A DNA stretch of 40,731 bases from an uncultured Propionibacterium sp. (GTDB taxonomy: Bacteria; Actinomycetota; Actinomycetes; Propionibacteriales; Propionibacteriaceae): NCBI GenBank assembly GCA_937867175.1, contig CALMKG010000038.1, positions 1-40,731 of the forward strand. Reading direction: 5' to 3'. The translations under genes and the position numbers were made by a program. A model generated the notes under the pieces. It was not told where the DNA came from. It saw nothing but the letters and a program-made list of their open reading frames with translations, and did no database searches. Each line of letters opens with the position of its first letter. Position 1 is the stretch's first letter. This document shows, piece by piece, positions 13,739-27,517 of the stretch.

Positions 13739-16270
<2,532 letters not shown>

Positions 16271-16291
16271 GCACCACAAAACGAAGGACGT

Positions 16292-16323
16292 CGGCGGCGG
16301 ACCCCAACCGGGGCCCGCCGCCG
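16292..16323 (+). terminator. Strong hairpin terminator after clpC
   Basis: A 14-base stem with one mismatch: the left arm CGGCGGCGGACCCC pairs with the right arm GGGGCCCGCCGCCG around the loop AACC. It begins 21 bases after the clpC stop. There is no T-run, as is common in high-GC actinobacteria. Confidence 0.8.
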
Positions 16324-16329
16324 GTGCGT

Positions 16330-16541
16330 ATTGAGCTGACCTGGTCCCTGATGGTTGCGGTGGCGGAACGCACCACCTCAATGGCCTTGGCGGGATCAAT
16401 GCTGGCGGAAGAGACCTGGACGCCGTACACGCCCTTGGCCACGACGATCTCAGCGGTCGTCCGATCAGACTCCAAGAAGGTCAGCCCGAAGGAAGCGTCA
16501 CCGGACGCGGTGTCGAAGGACCGGGGCCGGGCGTCCTCCGG
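16330..16541 (-). other. Coding-like stretch without a good start, probable gene fragment
   Basis: The gap 16271-16688 holds the clpC terminator, this stretch and the dodecin promoter. On the minus strand a frame opened by a stop just above 16541 reads in good high-GC3 codons through SFDTASGDASFGLTF, TTAEIVVAKGVYGV and SASIDPAKAIEVVRSAT, and looks like real protein. It has only a TTG start (16475), no ribosome site, and runs into the terminator hairpin and the clpC 3' end, where it loses protein-like character. I do not recognise it. A decayed gene fragment is the simplest reading. Confidence 0.3.
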
Positions 16542-16614
16542 CTACCGGTGTCAGATCGCCCGACCCGGGTCTGACGAGGGTCTGTCGGCCCGCCGATTAC
16601 CGCGCCAACACCCC

Positions 16615-16643
16615 TTGCCGATGCGCTGGATTGCAGGTAGAAA
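16615..16643 (+). promoter_or_regulatory. Putative dodecin promoter
   Basis: TTGCCG (16615-16620), 17-base spacer, TAGAAA (16638-16643). It is about 46 bases upstream of the dodecin ATG. Confidence 0.35.
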
Positions 16644-16688
16644 GAGTGGCAGGGGGCAAGCCTGTGCACCCGGATCAAGGAGGGGTCT

Positions 16689-16895
16689 ATGAGCGTTTAT
16701 CGAGTGACAGATCTCGTCGGAACCAGTACCGAGTCTTGGGAGGACGCTGCCGCCGCCGCAATCAAGGTGGCCAGCAAGACCATTCGCGACCTCCGGGTCG
16801 CCGAGGTGGTCGAGCAGGACGTCCACATTGATGCGGGTGGTCAACTCACCTTCCGGACGAAGCTTCGGGTCTCCTTCAAGTACGAAGACAAGTAA
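16689..16895 (+). CDS. Dodecin (flavin-binding dodecamer)
   Basis: 68 residues, the standard dodecin length. The family pattern is intact: VYRVTDLVGTSTESWEDAAA, then the helix AIKVASKTIRDLRVAEV and the strands VEQDVHIDAGG and YRTKLRVSFKYE-like C-terminus (here FRTKLRVSFKYED). The residues around W17 and the strand near Q/E form the stacked flavin pocket. Dodecins bind and quench free FMN, FAD or lumichrome, or bind CoA. Monocistronic, with a perfect AAGGAGGGG ribosome site and flanked by terminators. Confidence 0.93.
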   Translation: MSVYRVTDLVGTSTESWEDAAAAAIKVASKTIRDLRVAEVVEQDVHIDAGGQLTFRTKLRVSFKYEDK

Positions 16896-16919
16896 TCAAC
16901 TCCTACTGAACCCAGATTC

Positions 16920-16953
16920 GGGGTGGGGCTCGCCGTCGGGCGGGTCCCACCCC
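16920..16953 (+). terminator. Rho-independent terminator after dodecin
   Basis: GGGGTGGG (16920-16927) pairs with CCCACCCC (16946-16953), and the stem continues inward through CTCGCC/GGCGGG with two G-U pairs to a GTCG loop. TTT follows. Confidence 0.85.
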
Positions 16954-16987
16954 TTTGCCGTGGGGGGCGCGCGCTGAGAGGGGAACG

Positions 16988-16999
16988 TATAGGATTCCT
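16988..16999 (+). promoter_or_regulatory. Putative promoter element of the DMSO reductase locus
   Basis: TATAGGATTCCT contains possible -10 hexamers (TATAGG or TAGGAT) and the 9-base palindrome AGGATTCCT at the expected start-site position. It lies 50 bases before the GTG of the dmsA remnant. A comparable -10 plus palindrome is seen before dmsA2. Weak evidence. Confidence 0.3.
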
Positions 17000-17048
17000 C
17001 AGACAACTCGGAGGTCAGACGACGGTGTCTGGACAGAGGGAGTAGCCA

Positions 17049-17462
17049 GTGATCACCGGCACCACCAACAACTCATTGAATCGCCGATCATTCCTGAGGT
17101 GGTCGGCCGCTGTCGGCGGCTCGTCCGCCTTGGTGGGTGGCGGTTTGTTGACCACCGCGCAGGTGGCCCAGTCGCACGCGGAGCCCGACGCGACCGACGA
17201 GGTGGTGTGGAGTTCCTGCACGGTGAACTGTGGGTCTCGCTGCCCGCTGCGCCTAGTCGTCGAGGATGGCGTCGTTGTGCGGGTGCTGGATGACGACACC
17301 GGCGACAACAGCCTCGAGAACCGGTCAATCAGGGCCTGCGTGCGTGGCCGCTCAATTCGGCAGCGGATGTACAGCCCGTACCGGCTTGGAGCCTGCTTGA
17401 AACGTTCGCCCCACCGAGTCCTCGAATGCGGTGCTCAACACGATTGTGTCCAGCTGGGCTGA
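17049..17462 (+). pseudogene. Truncated DmsA-type catalytic subunit (N-terminal remnant)
   Basis: 137 residues. It aligns without gaps to the start of both downstream DmsA proteins: Tat motif NRRSFLRW, signal hydrophobic stretch, WSSCTVNCGSRCP with the [4Fe-4S] cysteines, DDDTGD, RACVRGRSIRQR and finally RLGACLKR, matching RLKTPLKR. After that (about base 17405) similarity stops and an unrelated tail with a stop follows. All the molybdopterin domain is missing, so the product cannot be a reductase. It is equally distant from both intact paralogs, so it is the relic of a third copy. GTG start with GAGGGAG upstream is preserved, so it may still be translated. Confidence 0.85.
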
Positions 17463-17478
17463 GATGAGAGGGGTCGAG

Positions 17479-20028
17479 ATGTCGGTCCTCATTCCGAGCG
17501 TTGACAGGCGCTCATTCATGAAGTGGTCCGGCGCCGTGGCCGGTACGACGGCGCTGGTGGGGTCGGTCGCCTACATCGGCATGCCAGGCGCAACGTCTGC
17601 GTCCGCTGAGCCGGCAGAGGGCATGGCCGAGGTGGACAAGACCGTTTGGAGTGCTTGCACGGTCAACTGCGGATCGCGTTGCCCGGTTCGACTGCAGATC
17701 AAGGACGGAGTCATCGTCAGGGTTCTGGCGGACAACACCGGTAGCGACGAAATCGGTGGCCAGCAGGTGCGCGCCTGCGTGCGTGGCCGCTCCATCCGGC
17801 ATCGAATCTACAATCCCGACCGGCTGAAGACCCCGCTGAAGCGCAAGGAAGGCACCAAGCGCGGCGAGGGCCAGTGGGAGGAGATCTCCTGGGATCAGGC
17901 GCTCGACGAGATCGCCGACAAGATGAAACAGATCAAGGCCGAGCACGGCAACGAGGCCTTCTACATCAACTACGGTACTGGGACGCTGGGCGCCACGATG
18001 GCGTGCTCCTGGCCCCCTGACGGCACTGCCTTCGCCCGGCTGATGAACACCTGGGGTGGTTATCTGGACCACTACTCCGACTACTCGACCACCGAGATCA
18101 CCCAAGCCTATCCGTACTTCTATGGCTCCTGGGTGTCGAGCAACTCCTTCGACGACGCGAAGAACTCCCGCCTCCAGGTGATGTTTGGCAACAACCCGCT
18201 GGAGACCCGGATGTCCGGCGGCGGGCAACTGTTTGTCGCCCAGCAGACCAAGGAGGCATCCGGCGTCCGCACGATCGTGGTCGACCCGCGCATGAGCGAG
18301 ACCGCCGTCGCGCTGGCGGACGAGTGGGTGCCGATCCGCCCTGGCACCGACTCGGCGCTGATCGCCGCCATGATCTACGTGATGATCCAAGAAGGCACAC
18401 ACGACCAGGACTTCTTGGACAAGTACTGCATCGGTTTCGACGAGGATCACATGCCGCAGGGCGCGCCCGCGAACGCGTCCTACCGCAGCTACCTGGAGGG
18501 CAGGGGCCCGGACGGCATCAAGAAGACCCCGGACTGGGCTGCCGGCATCACGGGCATCCCGGCAGCTGCCATCCGGCGGCTGGCCCGGGAAATCGCGGAG
18601 GCGAAGCCCTGTGCGATCACCCAGGGTTGGGGCCCCCAGCGGCGGGCCAACGGCGAGAATGAGGCTCGGGCGATCTTCCTGCTGGCCTGCGCGACCGGCA
18701 ACGTCGGCCTTCCGGGCGGCGGTACCGGTGGACGCGAGGCTGCCGCGGGGCTATCCATCGTCCAGCCATTCAACTATGGCTTGCAGAACCCGTCGAACAA
18801 GATCATCTCGGTCTTCTCCTGGTTGGACGCCATCGACCACGGTCCCAAGATGGACACCTTCAACGCCGGCGTCGGCGAGAAGCCGGCGCCCGGGGTACGG
18901 GCGATCAAGGTTCCGGTCGATGAAGACGGCAATCCGACCAACATCAAACTGGACGTGCCGATCAAGATGGTCTGGCAGTACGGCGGCAACTCGATCGTCA
19001 ACCAGACCGGCGACAACAACAAGTCGGTTGAGATCCTGCAGGACGACTCGAAGTGCGAACTGATCGTCGACTGTGACATCCAGATGACGGTTTCGGCCCG
19101 CTACAGCGACTACGTCCTGCCGGGTACCTCGTCCGCCGAGGAGTTCGACCTGCATCCCGGCGAGAATGCCGGCCCGATGGCGTACGGCATCATCTCGGAG
19201 CAGGCGATAGAACCCATGTACGAGTGCCGGTCGATCTTCGACATCTGCACAGACCTGGCCAAGCGGCTGGGCACCGAACAGGCGTACACCGAGGGCAAGG
19301 ATCGTGAGCAGTGGCTGCGCGAGGCCGTCGAGTTGTCCCGGGTCGGGGACCCCGACATCCCGGACTACGACACCTGGAAGCAGATGGGTCTGTACCGCAA
19401 GAACGCTGGCCCGGTCATCCCGCTGGCCGACTTCCGCGCCGATCCGCAGGCCAAGCCGATGGACACCCCATCGGGCAAGATCGAGATCTACTCGAGCCGG
19501 TTGGCGGCGATGGCCCAGAAGTGGACGTTCGGTGACTTCCGGCCCGAGCTGCCCGGCGATGTGCTCAAGCCCCTGCCCGAGTACGTGGCCACTTGGGAGG
19601 GCGCCGAAGATGCCATGAGCAACGAGAAGTACCCGTTGCAGATCATCGGGCACCACTTCAAGGCCCGGACCCACTCCACCTATGGCAACGTCGACTGGCT
19701 GCGGGAGGCCCACCACCAAGTGCTGTGGATCAACCCGATCGACGCGGCCGAGCGTGGCATCGCCAATGGTGACCAGGTCTTCGTCTACAACGACCGCGGC
19801 ACCGTCCGGATTGAGGCCCGGGTGACCGAGCGCATCGCGCCCGGTGTCCTTTCGCTGCCGCAGGGCGCCTGGTACCGGCCCACTGACGAGGCCGGGCCGC
19901 CGGGCGCCAACCCGGACGTGCCGGTCGATGCCGCTGGCTCGGTCAACTCGCTGACCTCCCTGCACCCTTCGCCGCTGGCGAAGGGGAACGCGGTCCACAC
20001 CACCATCGTCCAGGTTCAGAAGGTTTAG
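17479..20028 (+). CDS. dmsA: DMSO reductase family catalytic subunit, set 1
   Basis: 849 residues with strong similarity to E. coli DmsA over its length. Tat signal DRRSFMKW then a hydrophobic stretch shows export folded to the outer face. The FS0 cluster motif is CTVNCGSRCP plus RACVRGRS. The Mo-ligand region reads ATMACSWPPDGT, with Ser177 at the position of E. coli Ser176. Further pterin-site motifs: FGNNPLETRMSGGG, PRMSETAVALADEW, TQGWGPQRRANGE. It reduces DMSO or other S- or N-oxides with electrons from DmsB. The ATG at 17479 has GAGAGGGG upstream. Codon use is normal for the window, unlike its partners dmsB and dmsC. Confidence 0.93.
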   Translation: MSVLIPSVDRRSFMKWSGAVAGTTALVGSVAYIGMPGATSASAEPAEGMAEVDKTVWSACTVNCGSRCPVRLQIKDGVIVRVLADNTGSDEIGGQQVRACVRGRSIRHRIYNPDRLKTPLKRKEGTKRGEGQWEEISWDQALDEIADKMKQIKAEHGNEAFYINYGTGTLGATMACSWPPDGTAFARLMNTWGGYLDHYSDYSTTEITQAYPYFYGSWVSSNSFDDAKNSRLQVMFGNNPLETRMSGGGQLFVAQQTKEASGVRTIVVDPRMSETAVALADEWVPIRPGTDSALIAAMIYVMIQEGTHDQDFLDKYCIGFDEDHMPQGAPANASYRSYLEGRGPDGIKKTPDWAAGITGIPAAAIRRLAREIAEAKPCAITQGWGPQRRANGENEARAIFLLACATGNVGLPGGGTGGREAAAGLSIVQPFNYGLQNPSNKIISVFSWLDAIDHGPKMDTFNAGVGEKPAPGVRAIKVPVDEDGNPTNIKLDVPIKMVWQYGGNSIVNQTGDNNKSVEILQDDSKCELIVDCDIQMTVSARYSDYVLPGTSSAEEFDLHPGENAGPMAYGIISEQAIEPMYECRSIFDICTDLAKRLGTEQAYTEGKDREQWLREAVELSRVGDPDIPDYDTWKQMGLYRKNAGPVIPLADFRADPQAKPMDTPSGKIEIYSSRLAAMAQKWTFGDFRPELPGDVLKPLPEYVATWEGAEDAMSNEKYPLQIIGHHFKARTHSTYGNVDWLREAHHQVLWINPIDAAERGIANGDQVFVYNDRGTVRIEARVTERIAPGVLSLPQGAWYRPTDEAGPPGANPDVPVDAAGSVNSLTSLHPSPLAKGNAVHTTIVQVQKV

Positions 20029-20037
20029 GGGTGAATT

Positions 20038-20658
20038 GTGTCTGAGCGTTTGGGTTTTTATTTTGATCAGTCGTTGTGTACTGGTTGTAAGGCTTGTCAG
20101 ATTGCCTGCAAGGATAAGCATGATACGCCGGTGGGTGTGAATTGGCGGCGTGTGGTGGAGTTTTCGGGTGGTTCTTGGCAGGTGGTGGGGGATACTTTTT
20201 CGCCGCGGGTGTTCGCCTATTACACGTCGGTGGCGTGTAATCATTGTGAGGATCCGATTTGTGTGCGGGTGTGTCCGACGACGGCGATGACGGTTCGTGC
20301 TGACGGCACGATTTTTGTTGATGATTCGAAGTGCGTTGGTTGTCGTTATTGTGAGTGGGCGTGCCCCTATTCGGCTCCGCAGTTCAATGTCGAGACGGGG
20401 CATATGTCGAAGTGTGATTTGTGTTTTGACTATCGGCAGGAGGGGTTGACTCCGGCGTGTGTGGCGGCGTGTCCGTCGCGGGCGTTGGATTGGGGTCCGT
20501 TGGCTGAGTTGGAGGCGAGGTATCCGGGTGGTGTGAGGTCGGTGGCGCCGTTGCCTGATCCGTCGATCACTGAGCCGAATCTGTTGGTCAGACCGCATCG
20601 TGATGCGCAGCCGGTGGGTTCGGGTGTTGGTTCGATCGCGAACCCGAAGGAGGTTTGA
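20038..20658 (+). CDS. dmsB: DMSO reductase electron-transfer subunit DmsB, set 1, atypical codon use
   Basis: 206 residues. Four ferredoxin-type Cys groups are complete: CTGCKACQIAC, CNHCEDPICVRVCP, CVGCRYCEWACP and CDLCFDY...CVAACP, enough for four [4Fe-4S] clusters carrying electrons from DmsC to DmsA. The protein is close to DmsB of set 2 (roughly three quarters identical by eye). The coding is striking: in the first 50 codons, 24 end in T, 24 in G and 2 in C. In the first 50 of set 2 dmsB, 27 end in C and 4 in T. GTG start at 20038, nine bases after dmsA. Confidence 0.95.
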   Translation: MSERLGFYFDQSLCTGCKACQIACKDKHDTPVGVNWRRVVEFSGGSWQVVGDTFSPRVFAYYTSVACNHCEDPICVRVCPTTAMTVRADGTIFVDDSKCVGCRYCEWACPYSAPQFNVETGHMSKCDLCFDYRQEGLTPACVAACPSRALDWGPLAELEARYPGGVRSVAPLPDPSITEPNLLVRPHRDAQPVGSGVGSIANPKEV

Positions 20659-20660
20659 TC

Positions 20661-21665
20661 GTGGCTGTTGGTGAGTTGCCGATGATTTTGTTCACGGTTG
20701 TTTCGCAGATGTGTGTGGGTGCTTTTGTGGTGCTTGGTTTGGTGCAGACAGTGGGTGGGGTGAGGTATTCGTCCAGGGTGGTGGATCGGTTGGCCGATCC
20801 GGCGCTGTTTGCGCTTGGCCCGGCGATGGTGGCTGGCTTGGTTGCGTCGATGTTTCATATGCATGATGTGGGGAACACGCTGAATGTTGTTCGGCATTGG
20901 CAGTCGTCGTGGTTGAGTCGGGAGATCATTTTTGGGGTCGGGTTCGCTGGTTTGGGGTTCTTGTTCTTCTTGTTGCAGGTGTTGAAGATCGGTTCGCCGG
21001 TGTTGCGTCGGGTGTTGGCGGTGGTGACGGCGTTGTTCGGGGTTGGTTTGGTGGTTTCGCAGGTGATGATTTATTACTCGCTGGTGACCGTGCCGGCGTG
21101 GAATTCGTGGGCGACGTGGGTGCAGTTCTTTGGTACGGCGTTGTTGTTGGGGGCGTTGGCGGTTGGGACGGCGTTCGTGTTGGTGATGGGGCGTCGGCAG
21201 AAGCGGGTGGTTGGTTCGCAGGGCGTGGCGGTGGGTGAGGGCGGGTCGTACGGTCAGCGGTTGAGGGCTTTCTTTGCTGATCGGGAGGTTGATGATCCGC
21301 AGACTGCTGGGCAGGTGGCGGAGTTGCTGGTTGGCAGTGTGCGGGGTTGTGTGGTGGGTGCGGTGTTGGTGGCGGGTGTGTTGTTGGTTTCGATGCCGGT
21401 TTATGTGTCGGGGTTGGCTGGTTTGGGTGAGGTTGGTTTGGTTTCGGCGGCGCATTACGGGGCTGGTTTCGCGGTGATGCGGTTCGGGTTGTTGGTGTTG
21501 GGTGCGTTCTTGCTCGGTGTGATGGCGTTCTATTACGCGGGGTTCGGGACGAAGAAGTTGCCGGTGTTGGGGTTCTTGATGGTCAGTTCGTTTGTTTTGG
21601 TGTTCATCGGTGAGTTGATGGGCCGGGCGTTGTTCTACGAGGTGATGGTCCGCGTCGGCGTCTGA
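20661..21665 (+). CDS. dmsC: DMSO reductase membrane anchor DmsC, set 1, atypical codon use
   Basis: 334 residues with about eight hydrophobic helices. DmsC anchors DmsAB and oxidises menaquinol. His66 in MFHMHD and Glu88 in WLSREI are 22 residues apart, as are His65 and Glu87, the quinol-site residues of E. coli DmsC. I choose the GTG at 20661 (AAGGAGG eight bases upstream; product MAVGELPM matches MNVAELPM of set 2) over a TTG two codons earlier. As in dmsB of this set, codons end in G or T (TTG, GTG, GGT, TCG) with C avoided until the last few codons (GTC CGC GTC GGC GTC), which return to the local style. Confidence 0.93.
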   Translation: MAVGELPMILFTVVSQMCVGAFVVLGLVQTVGGVRYSSRVVDRLADPALFALGPAMVAGLVASMFHMHDVGNTLNVVRHWQSSWLSREIIFGVGFAGLGFLFFLLQVLKIGSPVLRRVLAVVTALFGVGLVVSQVMIYYSLVTVPAWNSWATWVQFFGTALLLGALAVGTAFVLVMGRRQKRVVGSQGVAVGEGGSYGQRLRAFFADREVDDPQTAGQVAELLVGSVRGCVVGAVLVAGVLLVSMPVYVSGLAGLGEVGLVSAAHYGAGFAVMRFGLLVLGAFLLGVMAFYYAGFGTKKLPVLGFLMVSSFVLVFIGELMGRALFYEVMVRVGV

Positions 21666-21675
21666 AACCCGCAAA

Positions 21676-22578
21676 ATGTCAGCCTCGACCGAACAGAAGC
21701 GCTCGCCCGGGCATTCGCTGCTGCTGTGGGCAACTCGTGAGGAGCGAGCGGGCACGGTGCGGTTGATCTGCGCGGAGGCGTCCGAACGGGTGCTCGCCGG
21801 CCGGGACGAGACCGTCGTTGCCTGGCGAGGCTGCCTTGACGACCTGCCCCGGGCGCTGCCTTTTGAACTGCTGAGCCTCGGAGTGGGGCGCGTGGTGCTC
21901 GACCTGACGGACTGCGGTGGCCCGTGGCGCACGGAGTGGTCGGAATTGGCGCTGGTCGCCGGCGTCACTGACCGGCTTCAGGTCGCCGGCGAACCACCGG
22001 CAGATGCCAAGCGCCCCAAGCAGGTGCTCGACGCGGACGCCATGCCGGTACTGCGGCGGCGCTCGATCTTCGGCTTGGGTGGTGTGCCGGACGAGCAGAC
22101 GCCCGGGCTGCCGGATCACGGCAGCCCACAGCAGCGCCTGCGCACCGTGATCCGCAAGCTCGCAGGCGACCACGGGCAAGCACCCGAACCGCCCGCCGCC
22201 GGATGGTCGTCCGGTGCGCTCGACCTCGTCAGCGAAGGCTGCACGGCGTGCCGGGTCTGCGTCCAGAGCTGCCCGACCGATGCCTTGGCTCTGCAAACCG
22301 CCGGACGGCGCGCCGGACTCGGTTTCGACCCCAGTCTGTGCATCGGATGTGGCAAATGCGTTGTGGTCTGCGTCCCGAAAGCCCTGAACGAACGTGGTCG
22401 CCTCGGCCCGCCCGCTCTGCTTGGTGAGCCGGTCCTGCTCGAACTGTTCGAGGTGCGGGCCTGTTCCCGCTGTCTGACGCCGTTTCGCGGAACCGGTGAG
22501 CACTGCCCGGTCTGCACCTATCGGGTGCAAAACCCCTTCGGCTCCACCATGCCGCCCGGCTGGGGGCCGTCGACCTGA
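21676..22578 (+). CDS. Ferredoxin-like protein with degenerate N-terminal domain and zinc-ribbon tail
   Basis: 300 residues, ten bases after dmsC. Middle to C-terminal: two [4Fe-4S] motifs, CTACRVCVQSCP and CIGCGKCVVVCVP, then a CxxC...CxxC pair (CSRCLTPFRGTGEHCPVC) that looks like a zinc ribbon. The N-terminal 130 residues resemble a worn MvhD/FlpD-type domain (VRLICAEAS, VAWRGCLDDLP, LSLGVGRVVLDLTDC), where redox partners dock. I know no characterised equivalent. Position inside the locus suggests an electron donor, or a maturation factor for the reductases. Codon use returns to the local high-GC3 style. No ribosome site is evident, so translational coupling is likely. Confidence 0.75.
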   Translation: MSASTEQKRSPGHSLLLWATREERAGTVRLICAEASERVLAGRDETVVAWRGCLDDLPRALPFELLSLGVGRVVLDLTDCGGPWRTEWSELALVAGVTDRLQVAGEPPADAKRPKQVLDADAMPVLRRRSIFGLGGVPDEQTPGLPDHGSPQQRLRTVIRKLAGDHGQAPEPPAAGWSSGALDLVSEGCTACRVCVQSCPTDALALQTAGRRAGLGFDPSLCIGCGKCVVVCVPKALNERGRLGPPALLGEPVLLELFEVRACSRCLTPFRGTGEHCPVCTYRVQNPFGSTMPPGWGPST

Positions 22579-22616
22579 GCCATCCCCCCGGCGTGCCCCG
22601 GCTTCCGAAGATCCTG

Positions 22617-22636
22617 TAGGGTGCTCGGAATCCGAG
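22617..22636 (+). promoter_or_regulatory. Putative dmsA2 promoter with start-site palindrome
   Basis: TAGGGT (22617-22622) as a -10, followed at once by the perfect 13-base palindrome CTCGGAATCCGAG (22624-22636) around the expected transcription start. A regulator bound there would block initiation. The gene starts at 22658 after GGAG. Confidence 0.4.
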
Positions 22637-22657
22637 TGCAACTGAACGGAGCTCGAC

Positions 22658-25120
22658 ATGGGAGTCGGTTTCCTGGAGCAGGACTTGAGGCGTCGGTCCT
22701 TCCTGAAGTGGTCGTCCGCAGTGGCTGGCAGCGGCGCCTTGGTCGGTGTCGGGCTGAGTCTCACCGAGATGCCCGGTGTCGGCCCGCAGCAGGCGGCGGC
22801 CGCCGGCGACGGCATGGCAGATGCCGACCGGACGGTCTGGAGCGCGTGCGTGGTGAACTGCGGTTCACGCTGCCCCATCCGCCTCCAGATCAAGGACGGC
22901 ACGGTTGAGCGGGTGCTACCCGACAACACCGGTGACGACAGTTTGTTCAATCGTCAGATCCGGGCCTGCGTGCGCGGCCGCAACATGCGCCAACGCATCT
23001 ACAACCCCGACCGCATCAAGACTCCGCTGAAGCGGCGCGACGGCACCGAGCGCGGCGCCGGGCAGTGGGACGAGATCAGTTGGGACGAGGCCTTCGACCT
23101 GTTCGCAGAGAAGCTGAAGTACACCATCGACACCTACGGCAACGAGGCGGTCTTCAAGGTCTACGGTTCCGGTGTCTGGAACGCGCATCTGGGTACCTCC
23201 GGTGGCTGGGCCCGGCTGTTCAACCTGCTGGGCGGCTACCTGGGTTACTACAGCAACTACTCGTACTCACAGATCGGCACCATCACTCGGTTCCACTACG
23301 GCAACCCGGACGAGCAGATCTCCAACTCCTTCGAGGACTCCATCCAGCACGGCCGCATGCTCGTGCTCTGGGGCAACAACCCGCAGGAAACCCGGATGTC
23401 GGGTGGTGGTCTGGTGTTCACCTCGCTCGAGGCCGCCAAGACCGCTGGCCTCAAGATCGTGGTGGTCGACCCGCGCCATTCCGACTCGGTCTCGTTGCTC
23501 GCCGACGAATGGATTGCGCCCCGTCCGGGAACCGACGCGGCGCTGGTCGCCGGGTTGGTGCATCATCTGGTCGCCAACAACCTGCACGACCAGGAGTTCC
23601 TGGACAAGTACTGCATCGGTTTCGACGAGGAACACATGCCCCCGGGGGCGCCCGCGAACGCGTCCTACCGCAGCTACCTGGAAGGCAAGGGCCCGGACGG
23701 CATCGAGAAGACCCCGGAGTGGGCGTCGCGGATCACCGGGGTCCCCACCGAGGTGATCAAGAACTTCGCGTTCGAACTGGCCACTACCAAGCCGGTCAAC
23801 ATCGCCCAAGGCTGGGGACCGCAGCGCCACGCCAACGGCGAGAACCAGGCCCGTGCGATCTACCTGCTGTCCAACGTGCTCGGCCAGGTCGGCATCCCGG
23901 GCGGCGGCACCGGCGGCCGGGAAGGCTATTACTGGCCGCTGACGCAATGGTTCCCGGATGGCGAGAACAAGGTACCGGTGTCCATCTCGAACTTCGGCTG
24001 GACCGACGCCATCGACCACGGCCCCGAGATGACCGCCACCAAGGACGGCATCCGTGGTGCCGACCGGCTGAACGTCGGCATCAAGTTCATGCTGGAGTAC
24101 GGCGGCAACATGTTCGCCAGTCAGCACGCCGAGAACCTGTTGACCCGCGAGATCCTGCGGGATCAGTCCAAGTGCGAGTTCATCTGCGTGGTCGACAACC
24201 AGTTCACCGGCTCGGCGGAGCTGGCCGACTTGGTTCTGCCCGACACCACCACCGCCGAGCGCTGGGATCTCGCGCCCAGCGAGTACACCGGCGACATGGC
24301 ATACCTGATCATGTGCGAGAAGGCCATCGAGCCGCTCCATGACTCGCGTCCGGCCTACGAGATGGTCACCGAGATCTCGAAGCGCTTCGGGGTGCAGCAG
24401 GAGTTCACCGAGGGCCGTGACCTCGAGGGATGGGCTCGGTACCTGCACGAGGAGCTCAACCGCAAGGCGGTGCCAGGTATGCCGTCGTTCGACGACATGT
24501 TGTCGCTGGGCGTCTATCGCTACGCGAACCCTGAGGGCACGACGGTCGCACTCAAGAGCTTTCGGGACGATCCGGTCGCAAACCCGCTGGCCACGCCGTC
24601 GGGCAAGATCGAGATCTTCTCGGCGGAGCTCTACGAGATGTCACTGACCTGGGAGTTCCCCGGCGGCGACAAGGGTGACCGGGTGAGCGCGCTGCCCGAG
24701 TACATCGCCACCTGGGAGGGCGCGGAGGAGGCTCGCGAGCCTGACGCCAAGTACCCGATCCAGCTGATCGGCCACCACTACAAGGCGCGCACCCACTCGA
24801 CCTACGGAAACCTCACCAATCTGCAAGAGGCGCACCCACAGCTGGTCTGGGTGAACCAGTTTGACGCCGCCGACCGTGGCATCGCCGACGGCGACATCGT
24901 CGAGCTGTTCAACGATCGGGGACGCGTCCAGATCAGGGCAAAGGTGACCCCCAGGATCATGCCGGGTGTCGCCAGCCTGCCGCAGGGCGCCTGGATGAAG
25001 GTGGACGCCCAAGGCGTCGACCATGGGGGTTCGGTCAATGTGCTCTCGCGACTGCACCCCGCCCCCGTCTCCAAGGGCAACTGCCAGCACACCAGCCTCG
25101 TCCAGATCAAGAAGGTGTGA
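22658..25120 (+). CDS. dmsA: DMSO reductase family catalytic subunit, set 2
   Basis: 820 residues, DmsA family throughout. Tat motif RRRSFLKW, FS0 motif CVVNCGSRCP with RACVRGRN, and pterin motifs GNNPQETRMSGGG and AQGWGPQRHANGE. It differs from set 1 in the Mo-ligand loop: set 1 and E. coli have a SWPP motif, but here the segment is about five residues shorter and reads LGTSGGWARL, leaving Ser181 as the probable ligand. This suggests a different substrate (another S- or N-oxide, or an oxyanion). A 124-base stretch is nearly identical to set 1 while its flanks are not. It ends with GTGTGA, and dmsB overlaps. Confidence 0.93.
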   Translation: MGVGFLEQDLRRRSFLKWSSAVAGSGALVGVGLSLTEMPGVGPQQAAAAGDGMADADRTVWSACVVNCGSRCPIRLQIKDGTVERVLPDNTGDDSLFNRQIRACVRGRNMRQRIYNPDRIKTPLKRRDGTERGAGQWDEISWDEAFDLFAEKLKYTIDTYGNEAVFKVYGSGVWNAHLGTSGGWARLFNLLGGYLGYYSNYSYSQIGTITRFHYGNPDEQISNSFEDSIQHGRMLVLWGNNPQETRMSGGGLVFTSLEAAKTAGLKIVVVDPRHSDSVSLLADEWIAPRPGTDAALVAGLVHHLVANNLHDQEFLDKYCIGFDEEHMPPGAPANASYRSYLEGKGPDGIEKTPEWASRITGVPTEVIKNFAFELATTKPVNIAQGWGPQRHANGENQARAIYLLSNVLGQVGIPGGGTGGREGYYWPLTQWFPDGENKVPVSISNFGWTDAIDHGPEMTATKDGIRGADRLNVGIKFMLEYGGNMFASQHAENLLTREILRDQSKCEFICVVDNQFTGSAELADLVLPDTTTAERWDLAPSEYTGDMAYLIMCEKAIEPLHDSRPAYEMVTEISKRFGVQQEFTEGRDLEGWARYLHEELNRKAVPGMPSFDDMLSLGVYRYANPEGTTVALKSFRDDPVANPLATPSGKIEIFSAELYEMSLTWEFPGGDKGDRVSALPEYIATWEGAEEAREPDAKYPIQLIGHHYKARTHSTYGNLTNLQEAHPQLVWVNQFDAADRGIADGDIVELFNDRGRVQIRAKVTPRIMPGVASLPQGAWMKVDAQGVDHGGSVNVLSRLHPAPVSKGNCQHTSLVQIKKV

Positions 25121-25734
25121 CCGCCATGTACGGCTTCTACTTCGACCAAACCTTGTGCAACGGCTGCAAGGCATGCCAGATCGCCTGCAAGGACAAGCAC
25201 AACAATCCGCTCGGCGTGAACTGGCGGCGGGTCGTCGAGTACAGCGGTGGTTCGTGGCAGGTGGAAGGTGACACCGCTCGTCCCAGCGTTTTCAGCTACT
25301 ACACCTCGATGGCCTGCAACCACTGCGAGAATCCGATCTGCGTCACGGTCTGCCCGACGACGGCCATGACCCAGCGCGCGGACGGCACCGTCTACGTCGA
25401 CGACAGCAAGTGCGTCGGCTGCCGCTACTGCGAGTGGGCATGCCCCTACAGCGCCCCGCAGTTCAACGCGGAGACGGGCCACATGACCAAGTGCGACCTG
25501 TGCTTCGACTATCGCGAGTCCGGCCAGGCTCCGGCGTGTGTGGACGCCTGTCCGGCGCGCGCCCTGGATTGGGGCCCGATCGACGAGCTACGCGCAAAGT
25601 ACGGTGACCAGAACGCCTTCGAGCCGCTCCCGGACCCCTCGACAACGCGGCCGAACCTGGTCATCAAACCCCACCGCGATGCCCAACCCATCGGCCATGG
25701 CAGCGGGTTCATCGCCAACCGCCAGGAGATCTGA
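25117..25734 (+). CDS. dmsB: DMSO reductase electron-transfer subunit DmsB, set 2
   Basis: 205 residues with all 16 cluster cysteines: CNGCKACQIAC, CNHCENPICVTVCP, CVGCRYCEWACP and CDLCFDY...CVDACP. It passes electrons from DmsC to DmsA. I take the GTG at 25117, which overlaps the dmsA stop and gives MTAMYGF, close to MTTQYGF at the start of E. coli DmsB; the ATG at 25126 is the alternative. Codons are C- and G-ending as elsewhere in the window, which makes set 1 dmsB the odd one out. Confidence 0.95.
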   Translation: MTAMYGFYFDQTLCNGCKACQIACKDKHNNPLGVNWRRVVEYSGGSWQVEGDTARPSVFSYYTSMACNHCENPICVTVCPTTAMTQRADGTVYVDDSKCVGCRYCEWACPYSAPQFNAETGHMTKCDLCFDYRESGQAPACVDACPARALDWGPIDELRAKYGDQNAFEPLPDPSTTRPNLVIKPHRDAQPIGHGSGFIANRQEI

Positions 25735-25736
25735 CC

Positions 25737-26732
25737 ATGAACGTCGCTGAGCTGCCCATGATCTTGTTCACGGTGATCGCCCAGATGTGCGTGGGCGCCT
25801 TCCTGGTGCTGGGCGTCGTCCAGACACTCGGGTCGTTGCGCTTCTCCGCCAAGGCCATCGACCAGGTCGCCGACCCGGCGTTGCTGGCGATCGGGCCCGC
25901 GATGGTTTTCGGGTTGGCCGTGTCGATGTTCCACATGCACGACGTCACCAACACCTTCAACGTGATCCGGCACGCCGGATCGTCCTGGTTGTCCCGAGAG
26001 ATCCTCTTCGGCACCGGCTTCGCGGCGCTGGGCTTCCTGTTCGCAGTGGTGCAGCTGCTCAAGTGGGGACGCCCTCGGCTGCGGCAGGCGCTCGCGGTCC
26101 TGACGGCACTGGTGGGGGTGGGGCTGGTCTACTCCATGTCGATGATCTACTACTCGCTGGTCACCGTCCCTGCCTGGCACTCCTGGTTCGTGCCGCTGCA
26201 GTTCTTCGCGACCACGGTCATTCTCGGGTCACTGGCGATCGGGACGGCCTTCGTGATCACCACATCGGTGCAGGCCCGGCAGGTCGCCCGGGGTGTCACC
26301 GCGTCTGCCGCCGATTCCGGTCGAAGAGTCTCGCTCCGCCAGCGGTTCACCACGCCGGCCGACCCGGCGGTGCGTGATGAGGTGGAGGCTCTGCTGGCTG
26401 TCTCGGTGCGCGGCATCGTGGTCACCGCGTTCGTTGCTTCGGCTGCGTTGTTGGTGGCGATCCCGCTGTATCTGAGCGGGTTGACCGCAATCGGCGGGGT
26501 GGCTCTGCAGTCGGTCGAGGTCTACTCCGGCGCGCTCTTCGTCGCCCGGTTGGGGCTCCTCGCACTCGGGGCCGGCCTGCTGGCTGTGTTCACCTACTTC
26601 ATCGCTGCGAAGCCACGCGAGAACCTGGGGCGGCTGGTCGTCGTGTTGACCACTTCCTTGGTGCTCGTCTTCATCGCCGAGGTGCTGGGGCGGGCGCTGT
26701 TCTACGAGTCGATGTTCCGCGTGGGCGTCTGA
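25737..26732 (+). CDS. dmsC: DMSO reductase membrane anchor DmsC, set 2
   Basis: 331 residues, about eight TM helices, two bases after dmsB with CAGGAG upstream. The probable quinol-site pair His (MFHMHD) and Glu (WLSREI) is conserved with the 22-residue spacing found in E. coli. It is similar to DmsC of set 1 along the whole length but with different loop sequence around residues 185-210. It completes a second enzyme that would move electrons from menaquinol to an exported acceptor reductase. Confidence 0.93.
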   Translation: MNVAELPMILFTVIAQMCVGAFLVLGVVQTLGSLRFSAKAIDQVADPALLAIGPAMVFGLAVSMFHMHDVTNTFNVIRHAGSSWLSREILFGTGFAALGFLFAVVQLLKWGRPRLRQALAVLTALVGVGLVYSMSMIYYSLVTVPAWHSWFVPLQFFATTVILGSLAIGTAFVITTSVQARQVARGVTASAADSGRRVSLRQRFTTPADPAVRDEVEALLAVSVRGIVVTAFVASAALLVAIPLYLSGLTAIGGVALQSVEVYSGALFVARLGLLALGAGLLAVFTYFIAAKPRENLGRLVVVLTTSLVLVFIAEVLGRALFYESMFRVGV

Positions 26733-26750
26733 TCTGGCTGGTACGTGCGG

Positions 26751-26792
26751 TCGGTAGGAGCGTTTCGGGCGCAGACCCCGTTCGGTTCCACC
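26751..26792 (+). pseudogene. Remnant of a second ferredoxin-like gene (last codons only)
   Basis: The 140-base gap after dmsC2 contains a frame reading SVGAFRAQTPFGST. This aligns without gaps to PVCTYRVQNPFGST near the end of the 300-residue ferredoxin-like protein that follows dmsC1. Eight of 14 residues are identical (V, R, Q and PFGST), most differences are conservative or single-base, and it sits at the equivalent place in the module. There is no start or stop in register, so it is a relic. Confidence 0.5.
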
Positions 26793-26872
26793 GGGCTCCT
26801 GGCCGGAAACCACGGAGCTGAGCGGAGCCCGCCTCCCGACGCCATAATCGACGTAGGACCGAGGAGGGTGTC

Positions 26873-27517
26873 ATGGCCGAACCAGACGTCGCAGCGGGTG
26901 TCCGCCCGGTGATCACACTGTGGGAGAGCGCTGGCTCGCAGATGGAGGCCATCGGCCGGCGGCTCGCAGAAATCCTGGGCCTGCCATTGCATGGCCAAGC
27001 CGTCAGCTCAGCTGACATCGCCCGGGCCTTTGCCGCAGACGACTCTGAGGACGATCAGTTCATCCGGCTGCTGCAGAGTTTCGGTTCGGATTCGGTCGTG
27101 CAAGACGTGTTGTCGCAGACCGATCTGGCCAGCCTGCATGACCGGATCGCCGAGAACGCCAGGGCCGTGCAACGGTGGGCCCGCGAGGGTGGGGTGCTGA
27201 TGGGACGCAACGGCGCCTACGTTCTTCGGGACTGGCCGCAGGCCTTGCACGTCTGGTTGGACGGCCCGGAGCCTGCTCGGGTGAATCGTGCCGCGGAGGC
27301 GCTGGATTCGGCGTCCGAGATGGTTGCCGTGCAGTTGAGGTTCGAGGACGAGTTGCGGGTTTCGATGTCGGTTTTCAGCTACGGCTACGACCCGCGCGAC
27401 TTGGATTACTACGACCTGGTGGTCAACACCTGCCGTCTGGATGTCGAGGAAGCCGCCCAACTGATTGCCGCCGCCGCGCGCACCCGGCACCCCGCCCCGA
27501 CGCGCGAAGCGCAGTAG
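26873..27517 (+). CDS. Cytidylate-kinase-like protein with degenerate P-loop
   Basis: 214 residues. The fold signature of the cytidylate-kinase-like (Cmk2) family is present: ITLWESAGSQMEAIGRRLAEILG at the N-terminus, VLMGRNGAYVLRD in the centre, ALHVWLDGPEPARVNR, and YYDLVVNTCRLDVEEAAQLI at the C-terminus. In active relatives the first segment holds a glycine-rich ATP loop (such as REYGSGG); here it is WESAGSQ with no Lys, so nucleotide binding may be lost or altered. The role is unknown. The ATG at 26873 has GAGGAGGG upstream. Relatives with this degenerate loop may act as sensors rather than kinases (inference). Confidence 0.65.
   Translation: MAEPDVAAGVRPVITLWESAGSQMEAIGRRLAEILGLPLHGQAVSSADIARAFAADDSEDDQFIRLLQSFGSDSVVQDVLSQTDLASLHDRIAENARAVQRWAREGGVLMGRNGAYVLRDWPQALHVWLDGPEPARVNRAAEALDSASEMVAVQLRFEDELRVSMSVFSYGYDPRDLDYYDLVVNTCRLDVEEAAQLIAAAARTRHPAPTREAQ

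What the first reader, a model, noticed from the sequence alone, without database searches (positions are those of the whole stretch)
20029..21650. dmsB1-dmsC1 carry a foreign codon style inside an otherwise native operon
In the first 50 codons of dmsB1 I count 24 T-ending, 24 G-ending and 2 C-ending; in dmsB2, which encodes a very similar protein, 27 end in C and 4 in T. dmsC1 continues this (TTG, GTG, GGT, TCG) until its last few codons, which revert to GTC CGC GTC GGC GTC. dmsA1 just upstream is normal. The switch is sharp at both ends. It suggests replacement of the B-C part by recombination with a donor that avoids C in third positions, or a strong local mutational or selective process on one strand.
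Basis: partly seen in the sequence, partly recalled or inferred. Interest (0 to 1): 0.7.

Follow-up and report, generated by a model that had tools for sequence, protein, structure and literature searches.

The report
Keto-rich tract within dmsB1-dmsC1 genes
Two neighbouring genes of a bacterial DMSO-reductase operon are written almost without C and A on their coding strand, even where this changes the protein; the pattern seems to have arisen in place and in more than one lineage rather than by import, and its cause is not known.

Summary
It is a keto (G+T) tract: A is depleted too, Leu is TTG, and GC skew reaches +0.53. Redrawing the same proteins with the neighbours' codons gives K3 0.47±0.02; observed is 0.885. 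The bias reaches codon positions 1 and 2, so the amino acids changed, only in B1 and C1. The favoured reading, import of B-C, is not supported. The Brooklawnia sister MAG carries the same tract, weaker, with dS like its neighbours. DmsC1 is the sister of the genome's own DmsC2, and B1+B2 sisterhood is not rejected; DmsA1, of normal style, is the phylogenetic outlier. Cellulomonas timonensis has the style at the same two genes, and common origin is rejected (p 3e-5, 2e-4). No matching donor was seen. A kinase in the sister genome has a keto half that stops within the gene. The best reading is a slow, strand-asymmetric process acting in place, still acting or maintained in this lineage and relaxed in the sister. 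Its chemistry is unresolved. A donor from an unsampled lineage cannot be excluded.

The parts
20022..21650 (+). keto (G+T) tract, maximum-likelihood limits; left edge 20005-20029, right edge 21622-21666
   Evidence: change-point fit; composition profile
20038..20658 (+). dmsB1, iron-sulphur subunit, 206 aa, K3 .91
   Evidence: TIGR02951 251.7 bits, cut-off 214.1; codon counts
20661..21665 (+). dmsC1, membrane anchor, 334 aa, K3 .87; last codons native
   Evidence: PF04976 83.5 bits, cut-off 22.3; codon counts
17479..20028 (+). dmsA1, molybdopterin subunit with Tat signal, native codon style, but in another DmsA clade than dmsA2
   Evidence: TIGR02166 1036 bits; tree and AU test
21676..22578 (+). 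ferredoxin-like gene after dmsC1, native style; marks the right edge
22658..25120 (+). dmsA2, native style, groups with Tessaracoccus/Propionibacterium
25126..25734 (+). dmsB2, native style, 75% identical to DmsB1
25737..26732 (+). dmsC2, native style, sister of DmsC1 in the tree (57% identical)

Best explanation
The tract is a resident B-C gene pair whose coding strand has been driven towards G and T in place, over a time longer than the split of the two Brooklawnia genomes. Shown here: B1-C1 alone is affected, all three codon positions are shifted, the sister shares it in weaker form, the genes look native by phylogeny, and a similar style arose separately in Cellulomonas. Inferred: a strand-asymmetric process at the DNA or transcript level has acted on this segment and is still acting, or is maintained, in the window lineage, while the sister drifts back to the genome average. 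The mechanism I think most likely is repeated single-strand exposure of the non-template strand during transcription (R-loops), with C and A lost to deamination and repair and the growing G skew favouring further R-loops. That last step is a hypothesis; I give it about half of this explanation's weight.
For: Position-specific shift against about 70 orthologues: K at position 1 z +3.7 (B) and +4.3 (C), position 2 +2.6 and +2.9, position 3 +4.4 and +4.1; dmsB2/C2 show no marked shift at position 2. Amino-acid-changing differences: C1 against Tessaracoccus DmsC, position 1, M>K 64 to K>M 17 (p 1e-7); A1 89 to 89; window2 B and C balanced. dS window/sister: A1 .66, B1 .69, C1 .51, orf300 .60, A2 .43, B2 .49, C2 .55, so the whole locus is orthologous; synonymous third-base differences are 81 window-K/sister-M against 19 reversed in B1+C1, and near even in the five other genes. 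Recent differences lie in transitions, T/C 47:8 and G/A 19:1, with G/C 12:9. Nativeness: DmsC1+DmsC2 100/97. Separate origin in Cellulomonas. Same phenomenon in another gene: a sister-genome kinase, K3 .80-1.0 over codons 1-325 and about .5 after that, while the orthologue in another genus is normal at 53-60% identity over the kinase domain. G clusters suited to R-loops: GGG 31-50 per kb against CCC 1-5.
Against: Deamination predicts C>T and A>G only, but at positions 1-2 C>G (175:50) and A>T (120:36) are in similar excess to C>T (292:67) and A>G (213:83). The edges coincide with gene ends within about 20 bases, and dmsA1 in the same apparent operon is untouched, which a transcription-linked process does not explain by itself. 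The asymmetry with the sister could also mean faster return to average in the sister. No transcription data exist for these MAGs. The DmsC1 stem is long (0.61), so an unsampled donor could sit on it.
Confidence: 0.5

Rival explanations
1. B1-C1 was acquired before the two Brooklawnia species split, from an unsampled actinobacterium with genome-wide extreme G+T coding strands, and is ameliorating more slowly in the window lineage.
For: A donor at skewed equilibrium would show the shift at all codon positions and by all routes, as seen. A phylogenetic break lies at the left edge. The DmsC1 stem branch is long (0.61).
Against: No genome of 296 from the phylum and 77 from the family has run counts near those expected of such a donor: 13 hits per 1.64 kb in the tract, at most 957 per genome seen; the detector is insensitive to weaker styles (0 hits in the sister tract). 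DmsC1's closest kin is the native DmsC2. Amelioration should be symmetric in two sister lineages, yet differences are 81 to 19. Style recurs in Cellulomonas in its own clade. No plasmid or viral relative found.
Confidence: 0.28
2. Selection on the transcript or its translation favours G and U in these two genes, for example weaker mRNA folding, escape from C- or A-containing RNA cleavage sites, or slower T-ending codons.
For: Edges match gene ends and the same gene pair is affected in two lineages. All M>K routes are about equally favoured. Sense-strand folding is somewhat weaker: -0.33/-0.29 kcal per mol per base against -0.34 to -0.41 in the locus's other genes.
Against: Amino-acid replacements follow the bias, which weak codon selection should not cause. 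About 60 other dms loci show nothing. Folding differs only modestly. The kinase tract stops within the gene.
Confidence: 0.18
3. Assembly or binning artefact, or a side effect of membrane-protein composition or of an overlapping antisense gene.
For: The MAG has 607 contigs and 7.8% contamination. Antisense stop codons are absent in the tract.
Against: An independent MAG shows the same tract and flanks. DmsB is soluble, and z-scores are relative to orthologues. The antisense frame is interrupted by 1 and 5 stops in the sister.
Confidence: 0.02

Closest known systems
Horizontally acquired genes with atypical codon usage
   Same: A segment with sharply different composition and a phylogenetic break at one edge
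   Different: By tree the odd-style genes look native and the normal-style dmsA1 is the outlier; no donor; shared with the sister; repeated in another lineage
Replication strand skew (G+T-rich leading strands of bacteria; G+T-rich heavy strand of animal mitochondria)
   Same: Same direction of bias, reaching amino acids; in those systems attributed to single-strand exposure (own knowledge)
   Different: Confined to 1.6 kb of two genes with edges at gene ends, not a replichore
Transcription-associated mutational asymmetry / R-loop GC skew
   Same: Bias on the non-template strand of a transcribed unit; rich in G clusters
   Different: Upstream dmsA1 of the apparent same operon unaffected; transversions also in excess; not tested for transcription

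Membership tests
DMSO reductase subunit B (TIGR02951) | score above the curated cut-off | tested here: met
   DmsB1 251.7 and DmsB2 258.5 bits against 214.1
DMSO reductase anchor DmsC (PF04976) | score above the gathering cut-off | tested here: met
   DmsC1 83.5, DmsC2 90.2 bits against 22.3
Horizontally imported segment (B-C replaced from a donor) | composition unlike the rest of the genome | tested here: met
Horizontally imported segment (B-C replaced from a donor) | segment branches with a foreign lineage while flanking genes are native | tested here: not met
   DmsC1 sister to native DmsC2; B1+B2 not rejected; A1 is the outlier
Horizontally imported segment (B-C replaced from a donor) | a genome with matching codon style exists | tested here: inconclusive
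   none among 373 genomes with a detector blind to weaker styles
Strand-asymmetric mutational tract | non-synonymous as well as synonymous sites shifted the same way | tested here: met
Strand-asymmetric mutational tract | spectrum of the proposed chemistry (C>T and A>G only, for deamination) | tested here: inconclusive
   recent differences fit; long-term differences include C>G and A>T
R-loop driven skew | R-loop formed over the tract in the cell | not testable with these tools
   needs DRIP or S9.6 mapping

The most novel reading that the evidence does not exclude
Some actinobacterial genes are subject to a local, persistent, strand-specific conversion towards G+T that ends sharply at gene or domain edges, alters the protein, arises independently in different lineages and can be switched off in a sister species: a gene-scale compositional process not described so far.
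Probability: 0.35. Interest if true: 0.8.

Novelty: new variant of a known kind. Interest (0 to 1): 0.55.

Why it matters
Atypical codon use is routinely read as foreign origin. Here the atypical genes look native and the ordinary-looking neighbour is the phylogenetic outlier, so composition-based calls of transfer would point at the wrong piece. If the process acts in place, it offers a bounded, comparable system (two species, strong and weak tract) for finding out what shapes strand bias at the scale of single genes.

Tried and rejected
Plain C-to-T change: rejected as the sole process, since fourfold boxes move from Y to G (Pro CCY 40% to 8%, Ser TCY 42% to 10%; from counts). Context rule: T after A or G is more frequent than after T, but native codon use has the same order. 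Antisense gene: broken in the sister. Structured RNA: no Rfam match in 16000-27000. Plasmid or viral source of dmsC1: none. Genus g8 (G014) as a donor: A3 about 0.2 and no genome-wide keto style. Codon pattern NNKx25 as a genome-wide detector: too many low-complexity and antisense hits. K-run detector (K40/K44): also catches homopolymers and repeats. An ORF picker by length misses keto genes because their antisense is open; replaced by a frame scan. MoaA of L076 is T-rich but uses CTT and CGC, so a different style. Paper searches found no description of such tracts.

Full report
What is there. The window (G000:C38, a 4.3 Mb Brooklawnia-like MAG in 607 contigs, 7.8% contamination) carries two tandem DMSO-reductase operons, dmsA1B1C1 (17479-21665) and dmsA2B2C2 (22658-26732), with a ferredoxin-like gene between them. 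dmsB1 and dmsC1 have K3 (G+T at codon position 3) of .91 and .87; dmsA1 has .47, dmsB2 .39, dmsC2 .53. The tract runs from 20022 (20005-20029) to 21650 (21622-21666).

It is a keto style. In fourfold boxes G rises and C nearly vanishes, A is almost absent, pyrimidine-only boxes take T, and Leu is TTG. Positions 1 and 2 shift as well: relative to about 70 orthologues K is +3.7 and +2.6 sd in DmsB1 and +4.3 and +2.9 sd in DmsC1, while dmsB2/C2 show no marked shift at position 2. Amino-acid-changing differences run M>K in B1 and C1 and are balanced in A1 and in B2 and C2. The bias therefore acts at the level of nucleotides and is not a translation preference alone.

It is old and shared. The sister MAG (Brooklawnia sp. 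AS27yjCOA_64, L045) has the same operons and the same tract at K3 .76/.75. Synonymous divergence of B1 and C1 is like that of the five other genes, so the locus was inherited as a whole. Third-base differences in B1+C1 are 81 window-K/sister-M and 19 reversed; the other genes are near even. Two lineages that only drift back to average would be even, so the process is probably still active or maintained in the window lineage and relaxed in the sister; faster amelioration in the sister is the alternative.

Where the genes come from. DmsC1 is the sister of the genome's own DmsC2 (100/97), next to Tessaracoccus and Propionibacterium. DmsB1's place is weakly resolved, and a B1+B2 clade is not rejected (p .12). 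DmsA1 sits in another, strongly supported clade of 22 with Georgenia, Arcanobacterium and Nocardioides, and A1+A2 is rejected (p 7e-10; a quick tree). The operon is a mosaic broken at the A1/B1 junction, which is also the left edge of the tract, but the piece out of place is A1.

It recurs. Cellulomonas timonensis has two tandem dms operons whose dmsB have K3 .77/.74 and dmsC .64 with normal dmsA (.45); Cellulomonas KJC.2 shows a hint (.60/.53), L062 only in dmsC (.68); the remaining dms loci are ordinary. A common origin of the keto DmsB or DmsC is rejected (p 3e-5 and 2e-4). Whether dmsBC is affected more often than other genes cannot be told from this sample, since loci were chosen for dms. 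In the sister genome a Ser/Thr kinase has K3 .80-1.0 over codons 1-325 and about .5 afterwards; its orthologue in another genus is normal, and positions 1 and 2 of the keto part are shifted too (82:21 and 35:18). Single keto genes also occur in other family members (L215:7539-8507, L222:4047-5300), found because runs of G+T were searched for.

Mechanism. The direction (G and T gained on the non-template strand) is that of a strand kept single-stranded, as in mitochondrial heavy strands and bacterial leading strands (own knowledge). Recent differences are the deamination transitions (T/C 47:8, G/A 19:1) with G/C near balance, and the tract is rich in GGG and poor in CCC, which suits R-loops. 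Against a pure deamination model, the long-term comparison shows C>G and A>T in similar excess, and the edges follow gene ends. I therefore hold the in-place process at 0.5 and the R-loop step at about half of that.

Limits. No donor was found, but the run-based detector would miss a donor of weaker style (13 hits in the window tract, 0 in the sister's), and DmsC1 has a long stem branch. No paper describing such tracts was found, which is weak evidence of novelty.

Noticed in passing
window 17049-17416: N-terminal remnant of a third dmsA (Tat signal and Fe4S4 domain, then broken), 54-58% identical to several DmsA, native codon style; the locus has lost or exchanged a dmsA before.
   Followed up: partly
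L153:4786-6366 (-), G001 contig 13: Ser/Thr kinase gene whose first 325 codons are keto style and whose linker and membrane part are not; orthologue in another genus normal.
   Followed up: yes
L083/L084 (Cellulomonas timonensis): Two tandem dms operons with identical DmsB protein (98.4% DNA) and 94% identical DmsC but only 64% identical DmsA: B-C homogenised while A differs, again a break at the A/B junction.
   Followed up: partly
L215:7539-8507 and L222:4047-5300: Other strongly keto genes in family members (a lipoprotein-like gene, K3 .93; an unknown gene, K3 .86).
   Followed up: no
G000 contig 208 (L156:4235-4876): A further keto-style open stretch in the window's own genome, K3 about .8.
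   Followed up: no
L076:1825-2856: moaA next to a dms operon in an Actinomycetaceae MAG with T3 .37, C3 .19, A3 .03 but Leu CTT and Arg CGC: another odd codon style.
   Followed up: partly
window 18751-20598 and 20430-21968 (-): Long antisense open frames (615 and 512 codons) over the tract, a by-product of missing TTA, CTA and TCA; not conserved in the sister.
   Followed up: yes
G000 contigs 259, 394, 416: Poly-G stretches, probably sequencing or assembly artefacts of this MAG.
   Followed up: no
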